Positions 23,244 to 27,925 of a stretch of DNA of 64,000 bases are shown here, in pieces. Made by a program: the position numbers and the translations under genes. The notes under the pieces were generated by a model. That model saw only the letters and a list, made by a program, of their open reading frames with translations. It did no database searches and was not told where the DNA came from. The stretch is from Flavobacteriaceae bacterium PS02337. Its GTDB lineage: Bacteria; Bacteroidota; Bacteroidia; Flavobacteriales; Flavobacteriaceae. How positions within the stretch are numbered: the stretch's first letter is position 1; each line of letters starts with the position of its first letter. The stretch is from positions 682,001 to 746,000 of the forward strand of contig JASCOE010000001.1 of assembly GCA_029959285.1 (NCBI GenBank), written 5' to 3'.

Positions 23244-23268
23244 TTACTCTGAGTTTTTAAAGAAATAG

Positions 23269-23305
23269 AAAAGCGCTGCGATCGATCTTGGATTACAGCG
23301 CTTTT
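23269..23305. terminator. Terminator after the C1 peptidase
   Basis: Ten-bp stem aaaagcgctg (23269-23278) / cagcgctttt (23296-23305) with A and T ends. It also lies just downstream of the minus-strand RelA/SpoT-domain gene, so it may end both transcripts. Confidence 0.75.
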
Positions 23306-23325
23306 GTTATTAATATTAGAATATG

Positions 23326-24216
23326 TTATATGCTGTATGATTTTATTAATTCAGGTGTTAAAGCATAAATTTTTTCATCTTTTAATTCGAAATGATTTAT
23401 TATATATACCAAATTATTTATGTTAACAGGTAGAGATAAATCAGATTTTGCAATTTTTAAAAGCAAATCACCTCTATCTAATTTAATAATTTTTTTAGCT
23501 AAATTATTATCAGTGTTGAATACACGTATAAGTTCAGGTTTTATCGGTATTAATTGAAATTTTAGTCTGAATTTGGTACGAATTAATGCTTCCCAATTTT
23601 GATTTTTAAAATGTTGATAGGCTAGTTCATTAAACAAACTTTTTAAGGCTATATCGTTTGTTTCTAAATTTGCATATATTCCATTTAATAAACGTTCTTT
23701 CTCCTTATGAGATTCCCAATCCGATTTGCATTTATATCTTAAACTATGGTCTATTTCGTGCCATCCTTCCGATAGCATAGTTCTTAATTGTAACTCAAAA
23801 GTATTATCAACAAGTAATAAGTTTTCATTTTGAGATGAAGTCTGTGTGTCTGAAAATATTTTAGTTTGCTCAGAATTAAATGAATATACTATATTAGTTC
23901 TTTTGGGTTTAAATACTGTTAAATCAAATTCATCAATTTCTTCATTTTGAAAAATAAACTTATCAGTAAGAATTTTTTTAACTAAACTGATGTCATCTTG
24001 AAAATATGTGACAATTCTAATTCTAATTAAATCTTGAATTTTTTTTCCATCGATTTCATATGGATTGCCATCTTGAATTTTCCTAATAATCTTTTCTTTA
24101 ATTGATTTGTCGTCTTTAGTTCTACTAAATAATCTATGTAAAAGGCCGATCTTATCTAGCTCGTCAGATATTTTTTCACTTATATCTTTTTCAATCATTT
24201 GTAATCCTGCAATCAT
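23326..24216 (-). CDS. Divergent RelA/SpoT-domain protein (possible nucleotide pyrophosphokinase effector)
   Basis: This 296-residue protein has no signal peptide or membrane segment. Synthetase-domain landmarks in order: RTKDDKSIKEKI (32-43, RxK...S...K), D62 in QDLIRIRIVTYFQDD (metal-binding Asp in the family), and FELQLRTMLSEGWHEIDHSLRYK (140-162) with E141, Q143 and R145. The canonical substrate loop GYRSLH is missing; its place is taken by KPKRTNIVYSF (103-113). The C-terminal 130 residues are lysine-rich and helical, and I do not recognise them. The start lies 1 nt after the stop of the NACHT gene, so translation is probably coupled. Known relatives make (p)ppGpp or (p)ppApp, or pyrophosphorylate tRNA as toxins; with the altered loop the reaction here is uncertain. 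The codons are visibly more AT-rich than those of neighbours, which suggests horizontal transfer. Confidence 0.78.
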   Translation of the reverse strand: MIAGLQMIEKDISEKISDELDKIGLLHRLFSRTKDDKSIKEKIIRKIQDGNPYEIDGKKIQDLIRIRIVTYFQDDISLVKKILTDKFIFQNEEIDEFDLTVFKPKRTNIVYSFNSEQTKIFSDTQTSSQNENLLLVDNTFELQLRTMLSEGWHEIDHSLRYKCKSDWESHKEKERLLNGIYANLETNDIALKSLFNELAYQHFKNQNWEALIRTKFRLKFQLIPIKPELIRVFNTDNNLAKKIIKLDRGDLLLKIAKSDLSLPVNINNLVYIINHFELKDEKIYALTPELIKSYSI

Positions 24217-24217
24217 T

Positions 24218-26368
24218 TTATTTAATATGTATTAAGTGACTAATAGCTTCTCTGGTAATGAATCCAACATCATCCTTAAAATGTAAAAAATCTTTTCTTT
24301 TCAAATTATCAATGACTTTGCTGACTTCTCGATCAGTATAACCAACTAAATTCTTTTTTATATAAGAGAATTTCCTAGCTCGGGGTTTTATTCCATCTAT
24401 GTGAAAAAAATGTTTTAAAACTTCTTCTTCAGTTAATTTAGGTGTTAAAGGACTCTCTTCTTCAATCATAACTTTGTTCTCTATTTCTTCAAGAAATGAA
24501 TTGTTTGTATTACAGGCATACAATGCAAAATCTACAAAATTGATTTTATCTGAATTTAATATTGTACAATTATAAAAACCACAATTTTGAAATGATGTTT
24601 TTTGAAATATTGAAGTGTCAAAAATGCAATTTTCGAAATTTACACTAGAAAAATTTGACTCTGAAAACATGCTATTTGAATTAAAAGATATGTTTTTGAT
24701 AGTTTTATCGATAAGGAATAAATTATTATATTTTCGATTAAATTTTTTGACTAAGCTATAATCTAATTCGAAGTAAAAATTAGTATCATACTGAAAATTA
24801 TTATCATTATAAATTGTCCAAAGTAATTCCTTATTAGTTTTATTTTGAATCTTAAATGATTCGATAGATTTTAATGCAAAATCTTGTGGAATTACTTCTG
24901 TAAAATTTTTATAATGTTGTTGAAATTTTTCGTGAATTAAATTTTCACCAATAAAATTTCCAAATATATAATCGTTAACAAAACCAACATCTCCATTATT
25001 TTTTCGATCTAAAAAAACATGATTTGATAAAGTATCAACTAAATCTTCTATTGTTGGTCTTTCTTCTGCGATATATTCTTTTAAACTCTCTTGTAAGGAT
25101 TTTAGATTGTAATCTTTAATTAATTCTTTAATAGTTTCTTTACTCTCTGCTGTAATATTAAATTCAGACATAAAGCGATTAAGTTTTCTAAAAATTCTTA
25201 ATTGAGCTTCATTATTTAATTTTAAATTCTGTCTTAATTGTTCTCTTTGTAATAAATAGTCAAAATATTTATTTATTAAAGTTCCGTCAGAATTAACCAC
25301 ATATTCTAATAATTTTTCAATTGGAATATTTCTTAAATAAGATAATAGAACTGGATTAGCTATTTGCTCTAAGGGAAAGGAGGCATTTTCTATAGCTTCA
25401 ATTTTATCTTTGTTTAACCAGTTTTCAATTGTTGGTTCTTTTATTTCAAATCTAGCTAGTGAAAAATTATTTTGTGATTCATATATAGTATTTAAAAATT
25501 CATCACTATTAAAAATTGCAGTTTTTCTAGAGGTTATTATTATTTTAGCTTGACCTTTCAATAAATCAATAATAGTGGTTAGCATACTTTCCACTTCATC
25601 CTTGTTGCTTTCTTTTGATATTAATTCATCAAAACCATCAATGATTAATGGGATTCTTCCTTTGAAAATTTGTTCTAATACTATATTTTGTTTTATTCCA
25701 TTAGGGAATTGATCATCAATTTCATTGAGTAAAATATGTTTAAAAACTCGAGCTTCTCTGTTTCTTGATAATTCAGTAAAAAAAGGCAATTTTTTGCAGT
25801 CTTTAACTGAAAAAGTATTTAGTATTTCATTTGCAGTACAAGTTTTTCCAAATCCAGCTGGGGCTTCAATAATAACGAATAGAGCGCCTGAAGTTTCATT
25901 TAGATATGTGTTAATTTTATCAATTAGTGAAGTGTCAGAAGTTCCATTATATGATGCATTTTCTAATATGTTTCCATCTTCATTTTGATAAATTAATTCA
26001 TAAGAACTTTTGATATATTGATATTCACTTCCTTCTGGTAGATTATGAAGTTGTTTGTTTACGAAATGTTTATATCTATTTCTTAATTCATTTCCTAAAG
26101 GCGTTTTTATAAAAAAACCATTAAAAAGATATTCCTCAATTGATTCTTCCGAATCTAAAATTTTTATATCAGTTGCATAACCCAATTCTGAATAATCATG
26201 TTTGTATTTTGTTACATCGTAATTCTTATCAAATGAAATTATTTCCGCAGCATGATACATCCCATATCTTAAAGTGTAAACTCTTACTTTATTATTTGAA
26301 TTCTCAGCTACCTGGTAATTATATGATTTAAATAAAGCATCAATTTTATGAATTCTATCTTCTGTCAT
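24218..26368 (-). CDS. NACHT-type NTPase with pentapeptide-like and C-terminal winged-helix-like regions
   Basis: This 716-residue STAND/NACHT protein is predicted to be a signalling ATPase. Residues 1-100 form an unrecognised alpha/beta region (RVYTLRYGMYHAAEIISFD). Walker A is EAPAGFGKT (168-176, K175, T176). Walker B is IPLIIDGFDELIS (239-251, D244, D247, E248), the NACHT-style DGxDE. IIITSRK (276-282) is the sensor arginine region. Residues 330-500 are helical. Five-residue repeats with F/I at every fifth position (NFSSV NFENC IFDTS IFQKT SFQNC, about 572-596) resemble a short pentapeptide-repeat sheet. The C-terminus (about 645-716; GYTDREVSKVIDNLKRKDFL) looks like a winged helix. Its partner 1 nt downstream is the RelA/SpoT-domain protein. 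NACHT proteins with an adjacent enzyme are often anti-phage systems; that role is inferred here. Confidence 0.85.
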   Translation of the reverse strand: MTEDRIHKIDALFKSYNYQVAENSNNKVRVYTLRYGMYHAAEIISFDKNYDVTKYKHDYSELGYATDIKILDSEESIEEYLFNGFFIKTPLGNELRNRYKHFVNKQLHNLPEGSEYQYIKSSYELIYQNEDGNILENASYNGTSDTSLIDKINTYLNETSGALFVIIEAPAGFGKTCTANEILNTFSVKDCKKLPFFTELSRNREARVFKHILLNEIDDQFPNGIKQNIVLEQIFKGRIPLIIDGFDELISKESNKDEVESMLTTIIDLLKGQAKIIITSRKTAIFNSDEFLNTIYESQNNFSLARFEIKEPTIENWLNKDKIEAIENASFPLEQIANPVLLSYLRNIPIEKLLEYVVNSDGTLINKYFDYLLQREQLRQNLKLNNEAQLRIFRKLNRFMSEFNITAESKETIKELIKDYNLKSLQESLKEYIAEERPTIEDLVDTLSNHVFLDRKNNGDVGFVNDYIFGNFIGENLIHEKFQQHYKNFTEVIPQDFALKSIESFKIQNKTNKELLWTIYNDNNFQYDTNFYFELDYSLVKKFNRKYNNLFLIDKTIKNISFNSNSMFSESNFSSVNFENCIFDTSIFQKTSFQNCGFYNCTILNSDKINFVDFALYACNTNNSFLEEIENKVMIEEESPLTPKLTEEEVLKHFFHIDGIKPRARKFSYIKKNLVGYTDREVSKVIDNLKRKDFLHFKDDVGFITREAISHLIHIK

Positions 26369-26469
26369 TATTTTTTTTTTAGTTATTAAGAATCTTAATT
26401 TTGTAAATAAAGTATTTTAAAGAATATTATAAACAAGTATAAATACCTGTTTATTCTTATTGTAAAATG

Positions 26470-26477
26470 CAAAATTA
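26470..26477 (-). promoter_or_regulatory. Candidate -7 element of the NACHT / RelA-SpoT cassette
   Basis: The minus strand reads TAATTTTG, matching TAnnTTTG, about 100 nt upstream of the NACHT ATG. No clear TTG box is seen. Confidence 0.4.
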
Positions 26478-26561
26478 GAGTGGTTAAGATAATTTGTATT
26501 ATGGTTTTCCATAAAAACTGTTAAAATAATAAGTGTAATTTTCTGGAAAATGTTTAAACAA

Positions 26562-26592
26562 AAAAAGACTGTTATTTATAGATAGTCTTTTT
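26562..26592. terminator. Hairpin terminator next to the regulator remnant
   Basis: Stem aaaaagact (26562-26570) / agtcttttt (26584-26592) with a 13-nt loop. It lies just past the stop codon of the minus-strand remnant at 26621 and was probably that gene's terminator. Confidence 0.6.
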
Positions 26593-26620
26593 ATTAAGTT
26601 TATTCTTTTATTAGAATTCG

Positions 26621-26743
26621 CTATTTCCCCTTCATCAACTTCTCCAAATACTTCACTTTATCCTTTTCAGCATGAACCAAACGCTCATAAAATTCCACAA
26701 CATTATTAATAGAATTACAGTTAAATTCCTTAAAAACTCCAAA
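26621..26743 (-). pseudogene. 3' remnant of a gene, possibly an XRE-type HTH regulator tail
   Basis: The reverse strand encodes about 40 residues ending FYERLVHAEKDKVKYLEKLMKGK before a TAG at 26621, with an in-frame TAA just upstream at 26744-26746. The closing charged helix FYERL-x-x-AEKDK-x-x-YLEKL resembles the C-terminal tail of many small XRE-type regulators of flavobacteria (from memory). No start codon or HTH remains, so this is a decayed 3' end. Confidence 0.35.
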
Positions 26744-26918
26744 TTAATTTCTCAAAAGACAATTTAAGGAAGCTTTATCCGTAATCAGGAACGCATCAGA
26801 ACAAAAATGTACTTTAACGTTTTTTCAAGTTGTTTGTAGAAAATAAAAAGCAAAACGGCAACAAAGCAATATTTTTGATAAAATTTTAAGACAAACTGTT
26901 AATTTTATTTAATTGTTT

Positions 26919-27596
26919 ATGAAAAAGTACGAAACGCTTTGGAGCGCCTTTTTGTTGATTATTTCGCTGAATTGTTTTGCTCAAAACGTAGCGAATGCTT
27001 CGTCTTCTTCAGAAAAAGGAAAAACGATAATATTAACAGATAATCTTGCATCTAACAAGGATTACGTAATAAAATCTTATTATGTAGAAGAAAGAATCAA
27101 CAAACTTTTTGGAGGAAGAATTATAACTTACGAAGTTTCAAAACTCGATATGGTCGATACATATGATTTAGGTCCGAATAATGTTCGAACGGTAATTCCT
27201 AGATATGTAAAAAGAAAACAGAAAATTACTGCTGTTGCCGAAACAAAACCTCAAGCCGGAACTTTGTCGGCTTCGCTACAACCGATTAAAGTCGATATTA
27301 AAGCTCCTGCCAAAGAAACGCAATACACAAGCGTAGATATTACAGGAACATATGAAAAAGTCTTAGAGAAAGGCTATAAATCGCCAGAAATGCTTCAAAA
27401 AGTAGCCGACCGACTTTATTTTGAAGGAAACCTAAATACAGCGGCAGGCTATTATGAACAATTGTTTATTTTGGTTAAAGATCCAGACGTTATTTATTAC
27501 TACAGATATGCGCAGTCATTAAAAGCAATTAATCAAATCGATAAAGCTGAAATTTTGATGAAAAGGTTTAAGAGTGAGACTTTGGTGGTGAAATAG
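26919..27596 (+). CDS. Exported TPR-containing protein related to the N-terminal part of OmpA/PorE-type proteins
   Basis: This protein of about 225 residues has a signal peptide ending LNCFAQ. I use the ATG at 26919; an upstream in-frame TTG at 26913 adds only two residues. The middle is basic and proline-rich (VIPRYVKRKQKITAV). The C-terminal 90 residues form TPR-like helices: VLEKGYKSPEMLQKVADRLYFEGNLNTAAGYYEQLF, then YYYRYAQSLKAINQIDKAEILMKRF. This arrangement matches the N-terminal TPR part of flavobacterial OmpA-family/PorE-like envelope proteins, but the WD40-like and OmpA domains are absent. It may be a stand-alone or cut-down relative. Confidence 0.65.
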   Translation: MKKYETLWSAFLLIISLNCFAQNVANASSSSEKGKTIILTDNLASNKDYVIKSYYVEERINKLFGGRIITYEVSKLDMVDTYDLGPNNVRTVIPRYVKRKQKITAVAETKPQAGTLSASLQPIKVDIKAPAKETQYTSVDITGTYEKVLEKGYKSPEMLQKVADRLYFEGNLNTAAGYYEQLFILVKDPDVIYYYRYAQSLKAINQIDKAEILMKRFKSETLVVK

Positions 27597-27601
27597 TTTT
27601 T

Positions 27602-27677
27602 TTAACCGCAAAGACGCTAAGGGAAAAGCGCAAAGGTCGCAAAGTTTTATTTTAAGCTTTGCGACCTTTGCGGTTAA
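27602..27677. repeat. Dispersed intergenic inverted repeat (ccgcaaag family), copy 1
   Basis: Outer arms taaccgcaaag (27603-27613) / ctttgcggtta (27666-27676). Alternative inner arms gcaaaggtcgcaaag (27630-27644) / ctttgcgacctttgc (27657-27671) are a perfect 15-bp match. A second copy with the same words is at 48796-48896. Confidence 0.85.
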
Positions 27678-27699
27678 ATTCAAGTTCAGTTTAAAGCAA

Positions 27700-27736
27700 A
27701 AAAAAAAAAGACGATCAATTTGATCGTCTTTTTTTT
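27700..27736. terminator. Terminator of the tRNA-Asn pair
   Basis: Stem gacgatca (27710-27717) / tgatcgtc (27721-27728) with a 3-nt loop and flanking A and T runs. It lies at the 3' side of the minus-strand tRNA genes. Confidence 0.85.
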
Positions 27737-27739
27737 AAG

Positions 27740-27813
27740 CTCCCCCTCTTGGGCTCGAACCAAGGACCCTCTGATTAACAGTCAGATGCTCTAACCAACT
27801 GAGCTAAGGAGGA
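27740..27813 (-). tRNA. tRNA-Asn (anticodon GTT)
   Basis: A 74-nt cloverleaf on the minus strand. The acceptor stem is TCCTCCT/AGGGGGA with one T-G pair. The D-arm contains AGCTCAGTTGGTTAGAGC. Anticodon stem TCTGA/TCAGA encloses the loop CTGTTAA, giving GTT. The T-arm contains GGTTCGAGCC. CCA is not encoded. It is identical to the copy upstream at 27852. Confidence 0.95.
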
Positions 27814-27851
27814 ATCACCTTAAAGGTAAATATGTTTGCTAAAAAAAGTTG

Positions 27852-27925
27852 CTCCCCCTCTTGGGCTCGAACCAAGGACCCTCTGATTAACAGTCAGATG
27901 CTCTAACCAACTGAGCTAAGGAGGA
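27852..27925 (-). tRNA. tRNA-Asn (anticodon GTT), second tandem copy
   Basis: Same 74-nt sequence and structure as the copy at 27740, separated by a 38-nt spacer. The two are probably one transcript ending at 27700. Confidence 0.95.

What the first reader, a model, noticed from the sequence alone, without database searches (positions are those of the whole stretch)
23326..26368. NACHT ATPase plus divergent RelA/SpoT-domain protein: candidate anti-phage toxin system
Seen: a two-gene minus-strand cassette with 1-nt spacing. It pairs a 716-residue NACHT-type NTPase (EAPAGFGKT, DGFDELIS, pentapeptide-like repeats, C-terminal winged-helix-like region) with a 296-residue RelA/SpoT-like protein. It is visibly more AT-rich than its neighbours and sits beside a decayed gene fragment. 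Known: bacterial NACHT/STAND proteins act as phage sensors, and small alarmone-synthetase toxins (ToxSAS, CapRel) abort growth. I do not recall a described system pairing these two as separate genes. Inference: the NACHT protein senses infection and releases or activates the nucleotide-modifying partner.
Basis: partly seen in the sequence, partly recalled or inferred. Interest (0 to 1): 0.88.

Follow-up and report, generated by a model that had tools for sequence, protein, structure and literature searches.

The report
Immune sensor paired with alarmone-like enzyme
A two-gene cassette, found in many unrelated bacteria and also on prophages and plasmids, pairs an NLR-like immune sensor with an unusual relative of the alarmone-making enzymes; it is most likely an undescribed anti-phage system and resembles, in two separate genes, a fused sensor known from fungi.

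Summary
Confirmed, and stronger than reported. A 716-aa NACHT protein is followed, 1 nt downstream, by a 296-aa RelA/SpoT-fold (RSH) protein. Of the 80 best genomic RSH relatives, 73 have the NACHT gene directly upstream on the same strand (2 lie at contig ends, 5 lack it). NACHT searches returned the same genomes (6 of 6), plasmids (6 of 6) and viral contigs (7 of 7) as RSH searches. The proteins co-diverge (r 0.93). On two prophages the pair directly follows the repressor gene. In the window it fills a slot that is empty in 5 of 11 same-genus genomes and holds other cargo in 4, once a dCTP-deaminase defence gene. RSH keeps its ATP-donor site, but in 86 of 86 members the canonical GYxSxH acceptor loop is replaced by FxxxRxN-type sequence, so its acceptor is probably unusual. 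The NACHT N-terminus looks like an inactive endonuclease, leaving RSH as the candidate effector. Best reading: NACHT senses phage and activates RSH, which arrests the cell. No experiment shows this. I found no report of the bacterial pair; fused RelA_SpoT-NACHT proteins are known in fungi.

The parts
24218..26368 (-). NACHT (STAND) NTPase gene, 716 aa, predicted sensor/switch
   Evidence: ORF and translation; Pfam NACHT; A171 G172 G174 K175 T176 and D244-L249 invariant in 68 of 68 rows
25997..26347 (-). N-terminal NA-iREase2 domain (aa 8-124), inactive endonuclease fold by family name
   Evidence: PF22723 3.9e-34; among D, E, K, R, H, N and Q only E78 reaches 80% conservation in residues 1-130 of 68 rows, so no PD-(D/E)xK set
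25484..25876 (-). NACHT ATPase domain (aa 165-295)
   Evidence: PF05729 6.7e-9
24563..24685 (-). pentapeptide-like repeats (aa 562-602), part of the variable C-terminal half
   Evidence: Pfam sub-threshold; profile vs PDB Qnr 2.6e-6; mean identity 0.285 in aa 541-625 against 0.508 in aa 150-330
24221..24451 (-). C-terminal region (aa 640-716), least conserved of the parts measured, candidate sensing end; winged helix not confirmed
   Evidence: mean pairwise identity 0.264 over 68 rows
23326..24216 (-). RelA/SpoT-fold (RSH) gene, 296 aa, predicted effector
23722..24126 (-). synthetase (pyrophosphotransferase) domain, aa 31-165
   Evidence: PF04607 1e-13; D62, R67, E141, Q143, R145, E150-E154, H157, K162 identical in 86 of 86 rows; R32, K34, S38, K42 in 84 of 86
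23893..23913 (-). altered acceptor (G-)loop, aa 102-108: FxxxRxN-type in place of GYxSxH
23329..23694 (-). helical C-terminal region of the RSH protein (aa 175-296) with largely conserved basic residues R175, K204, R213, K215, R217, K241, R248
   Evidence: no family assignment; PDB rows mostly reach only residue 198, so this part is barely tested
26614..26716 (-). decayed remnant of an HTH regulator gene that stands intact at this site in relatives
   Evidence: 87% DNA match to the 3' end of the L133 131-aa gene; frame broken
23269..23305 (.). inverted repeat (AAAAGCGCTG...CAGCGCTTTT) between the convergent RSH and peptidase genes, terminator-like; homology to several relatives ends inside it (23277-23279)
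   Evidence: read by eye; boundary

Best explanation
The cassette is a mobile two-gene anti-phage system. The NACHT protein is the sensor and switch: its variable C-terminal half (pentapeptide-like repeats plus a divergent end) recognises infection, its NACHT ATPase domain then assembles, and its inactive-endonuclease N-terminus serves as a docking surface rather than a weapon. The RSH protein is the weapon: an ATP-dependent pyrophosphate transferase that stays quiet until the assembled NACHT protein switches it on, and then modifies an acceptor that stops growth and phage production. Because the base-stacking G-loop is replaced family-wide, the acceptor is probably not GDP/GTP bound in the usual way; the 3' end of tRNA is my first guess because toxSAS enzymes act there and the RSH C-terminus carries conserved basic residues. 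Shown by computation: both proteins, their close pairing and co-divergence, lateral mobility, position behind a prophage repressor, intact ATP site, altered acceptor loop. Inferred: sensing, NACHT assembly, activation, toxicity, the acceptor, and the anti-phage outcome.
For: Pairing: NACHT directly upstream, same strand, in 73 of 80 RSH loci (gap -68 to +17 nt; 4-nt overlap in 21 of 73). Reverse direction: the NACHT profile hit 4 of 249 family and 3 of 345 class genomes, the same ones as the RSH hits at E 1e-15 or better (6 distinct genomes, five of which are also among the 80 loci by contig coordinates); plasmids, 6 of 6 NACHT records are RSH records; viral contigs, the same 7 found from either side, adjacent in 7 of 7, four of them near-copies of one another. 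Co-divergence r 0.93 over 68 gene pairs, 0 of 1000 permutations as high. Defence-type context: in L112 and L113 the pair follows a phage repressor gene (PHROG 4) by 26 and 50 nt on the same strand; in L111 it lies between a Zot-like gene and an integrase; tyrosine recombinase downstream on two Pantoea plasmids. Window slot: of 11 same-genus genomes opened (of 38 with the flanking gene), 5 empty, 4 with other cargo, including a dCTP deaminase (PADLOC 4.9e-162) and a Panacea-antitoxin gene. Enzyme: donor-site residues correspond, by my mapping, to those that PMC11782079 reports for FaRel2 (passages) and are invariant or nearly so. Candidate effector by exclusion: the NACHT N-terminus lacks a conserved nuclease set. 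Activation rather than restraint: NACHT broken but RSH full length in L072, L079, L020 and L109; four of the five RSH loci without NACHT keep a full-length RSH. [quoted passage not shown]
Against: No experiment. Defence-gene enrichment among neighbours is inconclusive. No match in PADLOC-DB 2023. Five of 78 RSH loci with upstream DNA lack the NACHT gene, and 2 of the 8 plasmid records covering 80% or more of RSH (Lachnospira) have no NACHT match, so RSH can exist for some other purpose. The acceptor is unknown; an invariant Phe102, three residues before the replaced Tyr position, could take over its stacking role. The window copy has Arg65 where the other 85 rows have Gly or Ala and may be weakened. 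Some NACHT breaks may be sequencing errors. No complex was modelled and the NACHT fold was never predicted.
Confidence: 0.7

Rival explanations
1. Toxin-antitoxin module: RSH is a constitutively active toxSAS-like toxin and the NACHT protein is its antitoxin, releasing it on infection.
For: Tight two-gene operon with overlapping or near-touching reading frames; toxSAS and CapRel work by release from a neutralising protein or domain (PMC11782079 and PMC9712102, passages).
Against: NACHT genes are broken or cut while RSH is full length in L072, L079, L109 and the Yersinia plasmid L020, and five RSH loci have no NACHT neighbour; a free toxin should not survive so. Some breaks may be sequencing errors. 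A 716-aa STAND ATPase would be an unusual antitoxin.
Confidence: 0.17
2. The RSH protein is an ordinary (p)ppGpp or (p)ppApp synthetase, and the system triggers a stringent response or ATP/GTP drain upon infection.
Against: GYxSxH is absent at the G-loop in 86 of 86 family rows, whereas 6 of 6 other RelA_SpoT proteins looked at here have GYxSxH or AYxSxH; the Tyr of that loop is needed for protection by CapRel (PMC9712102, passages).
Confidence: 0.2
3. The RSH protein is a dead enzyme used as a nucleotide-binding scaffold or signal receptor, and the NACHT protein or a host factor does the killing.
For: Acceptor loop rebuilt; window copy has Arg65.
Against: D62, E141, Q143, R145, H157, K162 in 86 of 86 and R32, K34, S38, K42 in 84 of 86: a dead enzyme would hardly keep these residues over such distances.
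Confidence: 0.08
4. The cassette is not defence but a domesticated stress regulator or a selfish stabilising element carried by mobile DNA.
For: RSH genes without NACHT among what look like core genes in Parabacteroides and Dysgonomonas; defence-gene neighbourhood not shown.
Against: Position behind the prophage repressor in L112 and L113 and the shared slot with a dCTP deaminase are typical of defence cargo; the five loci without NACHT nest inside paired clades, as losses (quick tree).
Confidence: 0.12

Closest known systems
Bacterial NACHT (bNACHT) NLR-related defence proteins
   Same: Central NACHT ATPase with invariant Walker-type motifs, variable C-terminal half, mobile, found on prophages
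   Different: Clade-6 members carry an active PD-(D/E)xK effector in the same chain; clade-14 members lack a readily discernible effector (PMC12169576, passages). Here the N-terminal endonuclease-like domain is of an inactive family and the effector candidate is a separate RSH gene
CapRel and toxSAS toxin-antitoxin enzymes (FaRel2)
   Different: No canonical G-loop Tyr/His in 86 of 86 rows; partner is a 716-aa NACHT ATPase instead of a small antitoxin or pseudo-zinc-finger domain
Small alarmone synthetases SAS1/SAS2 (RelQ/RelP)
   Different: Acceptor loop replaced; extra helical C-terminal region of about 100 residues; operon with NACHT
Fungal NLRs with RelA_SpoT effector domain fused to NACHT
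   Same: Same combination, RelA_SpoT with NACHT (PMC4986451 and PMC10197012, passages)
   Different: Fused in one chain, with WD40 or unannotated C-terminal parts in the examples seen; eukaryotic; role undocumented. The bacterial form is two genes with pentapeptide-like repeats. Sequence relationship not tested
RelA domains in MoxR-vWA ternary conflict systems, and RelA plus hydrolase CARF systems
   Same: RelA-type domain as part of a conflict system (PMC7159879, PMC10910872, passages)
   Different: Different partners (MoxR-vWA, CARF); no NACHT-RSH operon described in the passages seen

Membership tests
bNACHT / bacterial NLR-related protein | NACHT domain with intact Walker A and B | tested here: met
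   PF05729 6.7e-9; A171 G172 G174 K175 T176 and D244-L249 invariant in 68 of 68 rows
bNACHT / bacterial NLR-related protein | effector domain in the same chain (true of some clades, not all) | tested here: not met
   N-terminal domain is PF22723, an inactive-endonuclease family, without a conserved catalytic set
bNACHT / bacterial NLR-related protein | variable C-terminal sensor | tested here: inconclusive
   C-terminal half is least conserved (0.26-0.29 against 0.51); sensing not testable
bNACHT / bacterial NLR-related protein | protects against phage | not testable with these tools
   needs plating assays
toxSAS / CapRel | RelA/SpoT synthetase fold with ATP-donor residues | tested here: met
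toxSAS / CapRel | G-loop tyrosine for the acceptor | tested here: not met
   Position 105 is K, T, L, V and others, aromatic (F) in 1 of 86 among the types listed. The loose regex hit 2 of 86 rows, L018 and L019; by my reading these hits are YGTTH near residue 50, not the G-loop
toxSAS / CapRel | adjacent small antitoxin or fused pseudo-zinc-finger with YXXY | tested here: inconclusive
   upstream neighbour is a NACHT ATPase in 73 of 80; C-terminal part of RSH not assigned to any fold
toxSAS / CapRel | tRNA 3'-CCA pyrophosphorylation | not testable with these tools
   needs biochemistry
canonical SAS (RelP/RelQ) | GYRSxH acceptor loop | tested here: not met
   replaced by FxxxRxN-type sequence in 86 of 86
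canonical SAS (RelP/RelQ) | (p)ppGpp synthesis | not testable with these tools
   needs biochemistry
canonical SAS (RelP/RelQ) | NCBIfam GTP diphosphokinase YjbM model at its cut-off | tested here: not met
   32.1 bits against a cut-off of 320
RelA_SpoT-NACHT NLR (fungal type) | RelA_SpoT fused N-terminal to NACHT in one chain | tested here: not met
   separate genes in the window and in the 73 pairs
RelA_SpoT-NACHT NLR (fungal type) | common descent of the RelA_SpoT domains | not tested
   no fungal sequences searched

The most novel reading that the evidence does not exclude
A family of NACHT-controlled pyrophosphotransferases with a rebuilt acceptor site, using a substrate that no known alarmone synthetase uses, forms a widespread two-gene anti-phage system, and is the bacterial split counterpart, perhaps the source, of the RelA_SpoT-NACHT immune receptors of fungi.
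Probability: 0.35. Interest if true: 0.87.

Novelty: new variant of a known kind. Interest (0 to 1): 0.74.

Why it matters
It would add a RelA/SpoT-fold weapon to the NLR-type immune sensors of bacteria, as a stable two-gene pair in many Bacteroidota and Pseudomonadota (and, from metagenome bins, four more phyla) and on prophages and plasmids. Its altered acceptor loop predicts an unusual substrate and a quick biochemical test. It also gives a bacterial, genetically tractable counterpart for the RelA_SpoT-NACHT proteins of fungi, reported in 2014 and still called poorly documented in 2023.

Tried and rejected
Defence-island enrichment: I chose the two nearest complete ORFs (90-900 aa) on each side of the pair from 52 loci that had them, 202 proteins, and scanned the first 150 in list order (39 loci) against PADLOC and Pfam. 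PADLOC: 229 families matched, only 25 shown; those shown are mostly redundant methyltransferase models matching 3 or 4 of the 150 each. Pfam: N6_Mtase in 3, Methylase_S in 2, integrase core in 2. Control: 111 of 118 chosen proteins (five RelA_SpoT ORFs and two edge ORFs left out) from the window, three other family genomes and two orphan loci: 34 PADLOC families, up to 5 of 111 each. The tool counts families, not proteins, and the sets are not matched by genome, so 229 against 34 may be a real excess or only redundant methyltransferase models. I claim neither enrichment nor its absence.

E. coli: no DNA match to the Klebsiella pair in 20,395 records; DNA search only, so distant protein relatives are not excluded.

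PF22723 over 395 phylum genomes matched only the own genome: rare in that sample, and no information on other partners.

The 164 of 244 genome relatives beyond the best 80 were not returned and are in no count. Weak RelA_SpoT matches in the family scan (L002, L006-L009) had no NACHT match nearby.

Phyla: the six phyla come from record titles. The six loci outside Bacteroidota and Pseudomonadota are all metagenome bins, and the Bacillota bin L062 is nearly identical to a Bacteroidales copy, L063, so it may be mis-binned.

Absence from lists: FaRel2, CapRel and Tas1 did not appear in the profile search of PDB sequences but did in the fold comparison. The RSH C-terminal part found no match in either; it was barely tested.

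The NACHT model was asked for seven times and never accepted (because of plasmid rows; because of the queue), so its fold and any complex with RSH are untested. Foldseek against PDB was not run as such (queue).

Literature: searches showed no bacterial NACHT-RelA/SpoT pair in the listings and in the passages I opened; most listed papers were not opened. 'NACHT' with 'alarmone synthetase' gave 0 papers. The 2023 Cell paper on bacterial NACHT proteins is recalled by me and not held, so a mention there cannot be excluded.
Full report

The pair is real and widespread. A scan of one genome for each of 84,980 species with a nine-row RSH alignment found 244 relatives; the best 80 were returned. In 73 of these 80 a homologue of the NACHT protein lies directly upstream on the same strand, spacing -68 to +17 nt, 21 of them with a 4-nt overlap; L036 and L090 begin at a contig end, and L043, L047, L051, L053 and L065 have no NACHT gene. 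By record title the 73 fall in Bacteroidota (43), Pseudomonadota (24), Bacillota (2), Campylobacterota (2), Myxococcota (1) and Cyanobacteriota (1). The six outside the first two phyla are metagenome bins, and one of them (L062) is nearly identical to a Bacteroidales copy, so only two phyla are secure. The reverse test agrees: a NACHT-protein profile found 4 of 249 family genomes and 3 of 345 class genomes, the same genomes that the RSH protein found at E 1e-15 or better; six distinct genomes, five of which are also among the 80 loci. Four more family genomes and a second place in the own genome matched RSH more weakly; these are other RelA_SpoT proteins without a NACHT match nearby. In plasmids NACHT matched six records, all among the 12 RSH records; of the 8 RSH records with 80% coverage the other two are Lachnospira. 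I opened four of the six and saw the genes adjacent. In viral contigs, separate scans with RSH and with NACHT each found seven loci, on the same seven contigs, adjacent in all seven; four of the seven look like near-copies. Pairwise distances of the two proteins correlate at 0.93 over 68 gene pairs, and the highest of 1000 permutations was 0.13. The five loci without NACHT sit inside paired clades on a quick RSH tree, so they look like losses; three are in Parabacteroides and Dysgonomonas among what look like core genes, and L065 is cut beside IS21-like ORFs (my reading of the ORFs).

Mobility and setting. In the window the pair has GC 0.25 against 0.33-0.34 around it. The flanking peptidase gene was found in 38 of 61 same-genus genomes; I fetched the slot from the best 11. 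Between that gene and the gene at 26913, five have nothing, four carry other cargo beside a similar HTH-type regulator ORF, two are arranged otherwise or end at the contig, and none shows the pair. In two of the empty ones homology stops at window 23279 or 23246 and resumes at 26759 or 26745, with 44 and 86 nt between. The cargo includes a dCTP-deaminase defence gene (PADLOC dCTPase 4.9e-162, L138) and a Panacea antitoxin gene (L133). The decayed fragment beside the window pair is what is left of that HTH regulator. On two prophage contigs, L112 and L113, the pair directly follows a phage repressor gene (PHROG 4; CI-like by my reading) on the same strand, 26 and 50 nt away, with a small regulator gene diverging (PHROG 409; Cro-like by my reading) and Sak4- or Erf-type annealing genes beyond the pair. 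That is the place where temperate phages keep genes that are expressed in the lysogen and exclude other phages (for example lambda rexAB; recalled). On L111 the pair lies between a Zot-like gene and an integrase. On two Pantoea plasmids a tyrosine recombinase gene follows it.

The enzyme. In 86 aligned rows (window, 80 loci, five plasmid loci) D62, R67, E141, Q143, R145, EGWHE 150-154, H157 and K162 are identical, and R32, K34, S38 and K42 are present in 84; the other two rows are cut at the N-terminus (L065, L090). By my mapping these include the ATP-binding set that PMC11782079 gives for FaRel2: R64, K66, S70, K74, R95 (passages). The acceptor side differs. The HMM alignment to SAS structures puts GYRSxH opposite xxRxN. 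At that place all 86 rows have F-x-x-x-(R/H/K/M)-x-N and none the canonical loop (a looser pattern hit L018 and L019 elsewhere in the chain). In CapRel the G-loop Tyr is needed for protection (PMC9712102, passages), and in FaRel2 it coordinates the acceptor base. So this family most likely keeps ATP as donor and has changed its acceptor or how it holds it. An invariant Phe102 might stand in for the Tyr, so a nucleotide acceptor is not excluded. The window copy alone has Arg at 65, where 80 rows have Gly and 5 Ala.

How it most likely works. The NACHT protein has an invariant Walker set and no conserved nuclease residues in its N-terminal domain. That leaves RSH as the candidate effector. The C-terminal half of NACHT is the most variable, as expected of a sensor. 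In four cases (L072, L079, viral L109 and plasmid L020) the NACHT gene is broken or cut while RSH is full length, and five RSH loci have no NACHT; this fits an RSH that is silent unless activated better than a toxin held by a NACHT antitoxin. Some of the breaks may be sequencing errors. The chain is thus: phage signal, NACHT assembly, RSH activation, transfer of pyrophosphate to an essential acceptor (tRNA 3' end is my first guess), growth arrest. Only the anatomy, pairing and conservation are shown.

What is known. [quoted passage not shown] PMC10197012, passages). RelA-type domains are mentioned as less frequent parts of MoxR-vWA ternary systems (PMC7159879, passages) and RelA in CARF systems (PMC10910872, passages). 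Clade-6 bNACHT proteins carry a nuclease effector in the same chain (PMC12169576, passages). My searches showed no bacterial NACHT-RelA/SpoT pair in print; I opened passages of a few papers only, and the bNACHT survey that I recall is not in the library. I therefore call it a new variant of a known kind: an NLR-type system with a separate, altered RelA/SpoT-fold effector.

Against my reading. No function has been tested. Whether neighbouring genes are enriched in defence families is inconclusive. RSH genes without NACHT show that the enzyme can persist alone. The remaining 164 relatives were not seen. The NACHT fold and the complex could not be predicted.

Noticed in passing
window 23244-27925: The slot between a peptidase-like gene and a gene next to two tRNA-Asn genes and an rseP-like gene (names by my reading) is an accessory hotspot in the genus: empty, dCTP deaminase, Panacea antitoxin gene, pentapeptide-like protein or unknown genes.
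   Followed up: partly
L022:6941-8770: Lachnospira eligens carries an RSH of this family fused to about 320 extra residues of unknown kind, without NACHT, next to an adenosine deaminase gene.
   Followed up: no
L047, L051, L053: Parabacteroides and Dysgonomonas keep an RSH of this family without NACHT, in P. gordonii just before a large gene that looks like dnaE (my reading); possible domesticated use.
   Followed up: no
L016:8214-11290: A different RelA_SpoT protein (329 aa, GYISNH loop) sits tightly between two similarly long unknown ORFs (346 and 349 aa) on the same strand; possible other small operon.
   Followed up: no
L017:9166-9777: The window's own genome has a second, weak RelA_SpoT match with a GYRSLH loop whose frame is interrupted by a stop.
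   Followed up: no
window 24022-24024 (RSH codon 65): Only the window copy has Arg where the 85 other aligned rows have Gly or Ala in the D-x-x-G-x-R motif; this copy may be weakened.
   Followed up: partly
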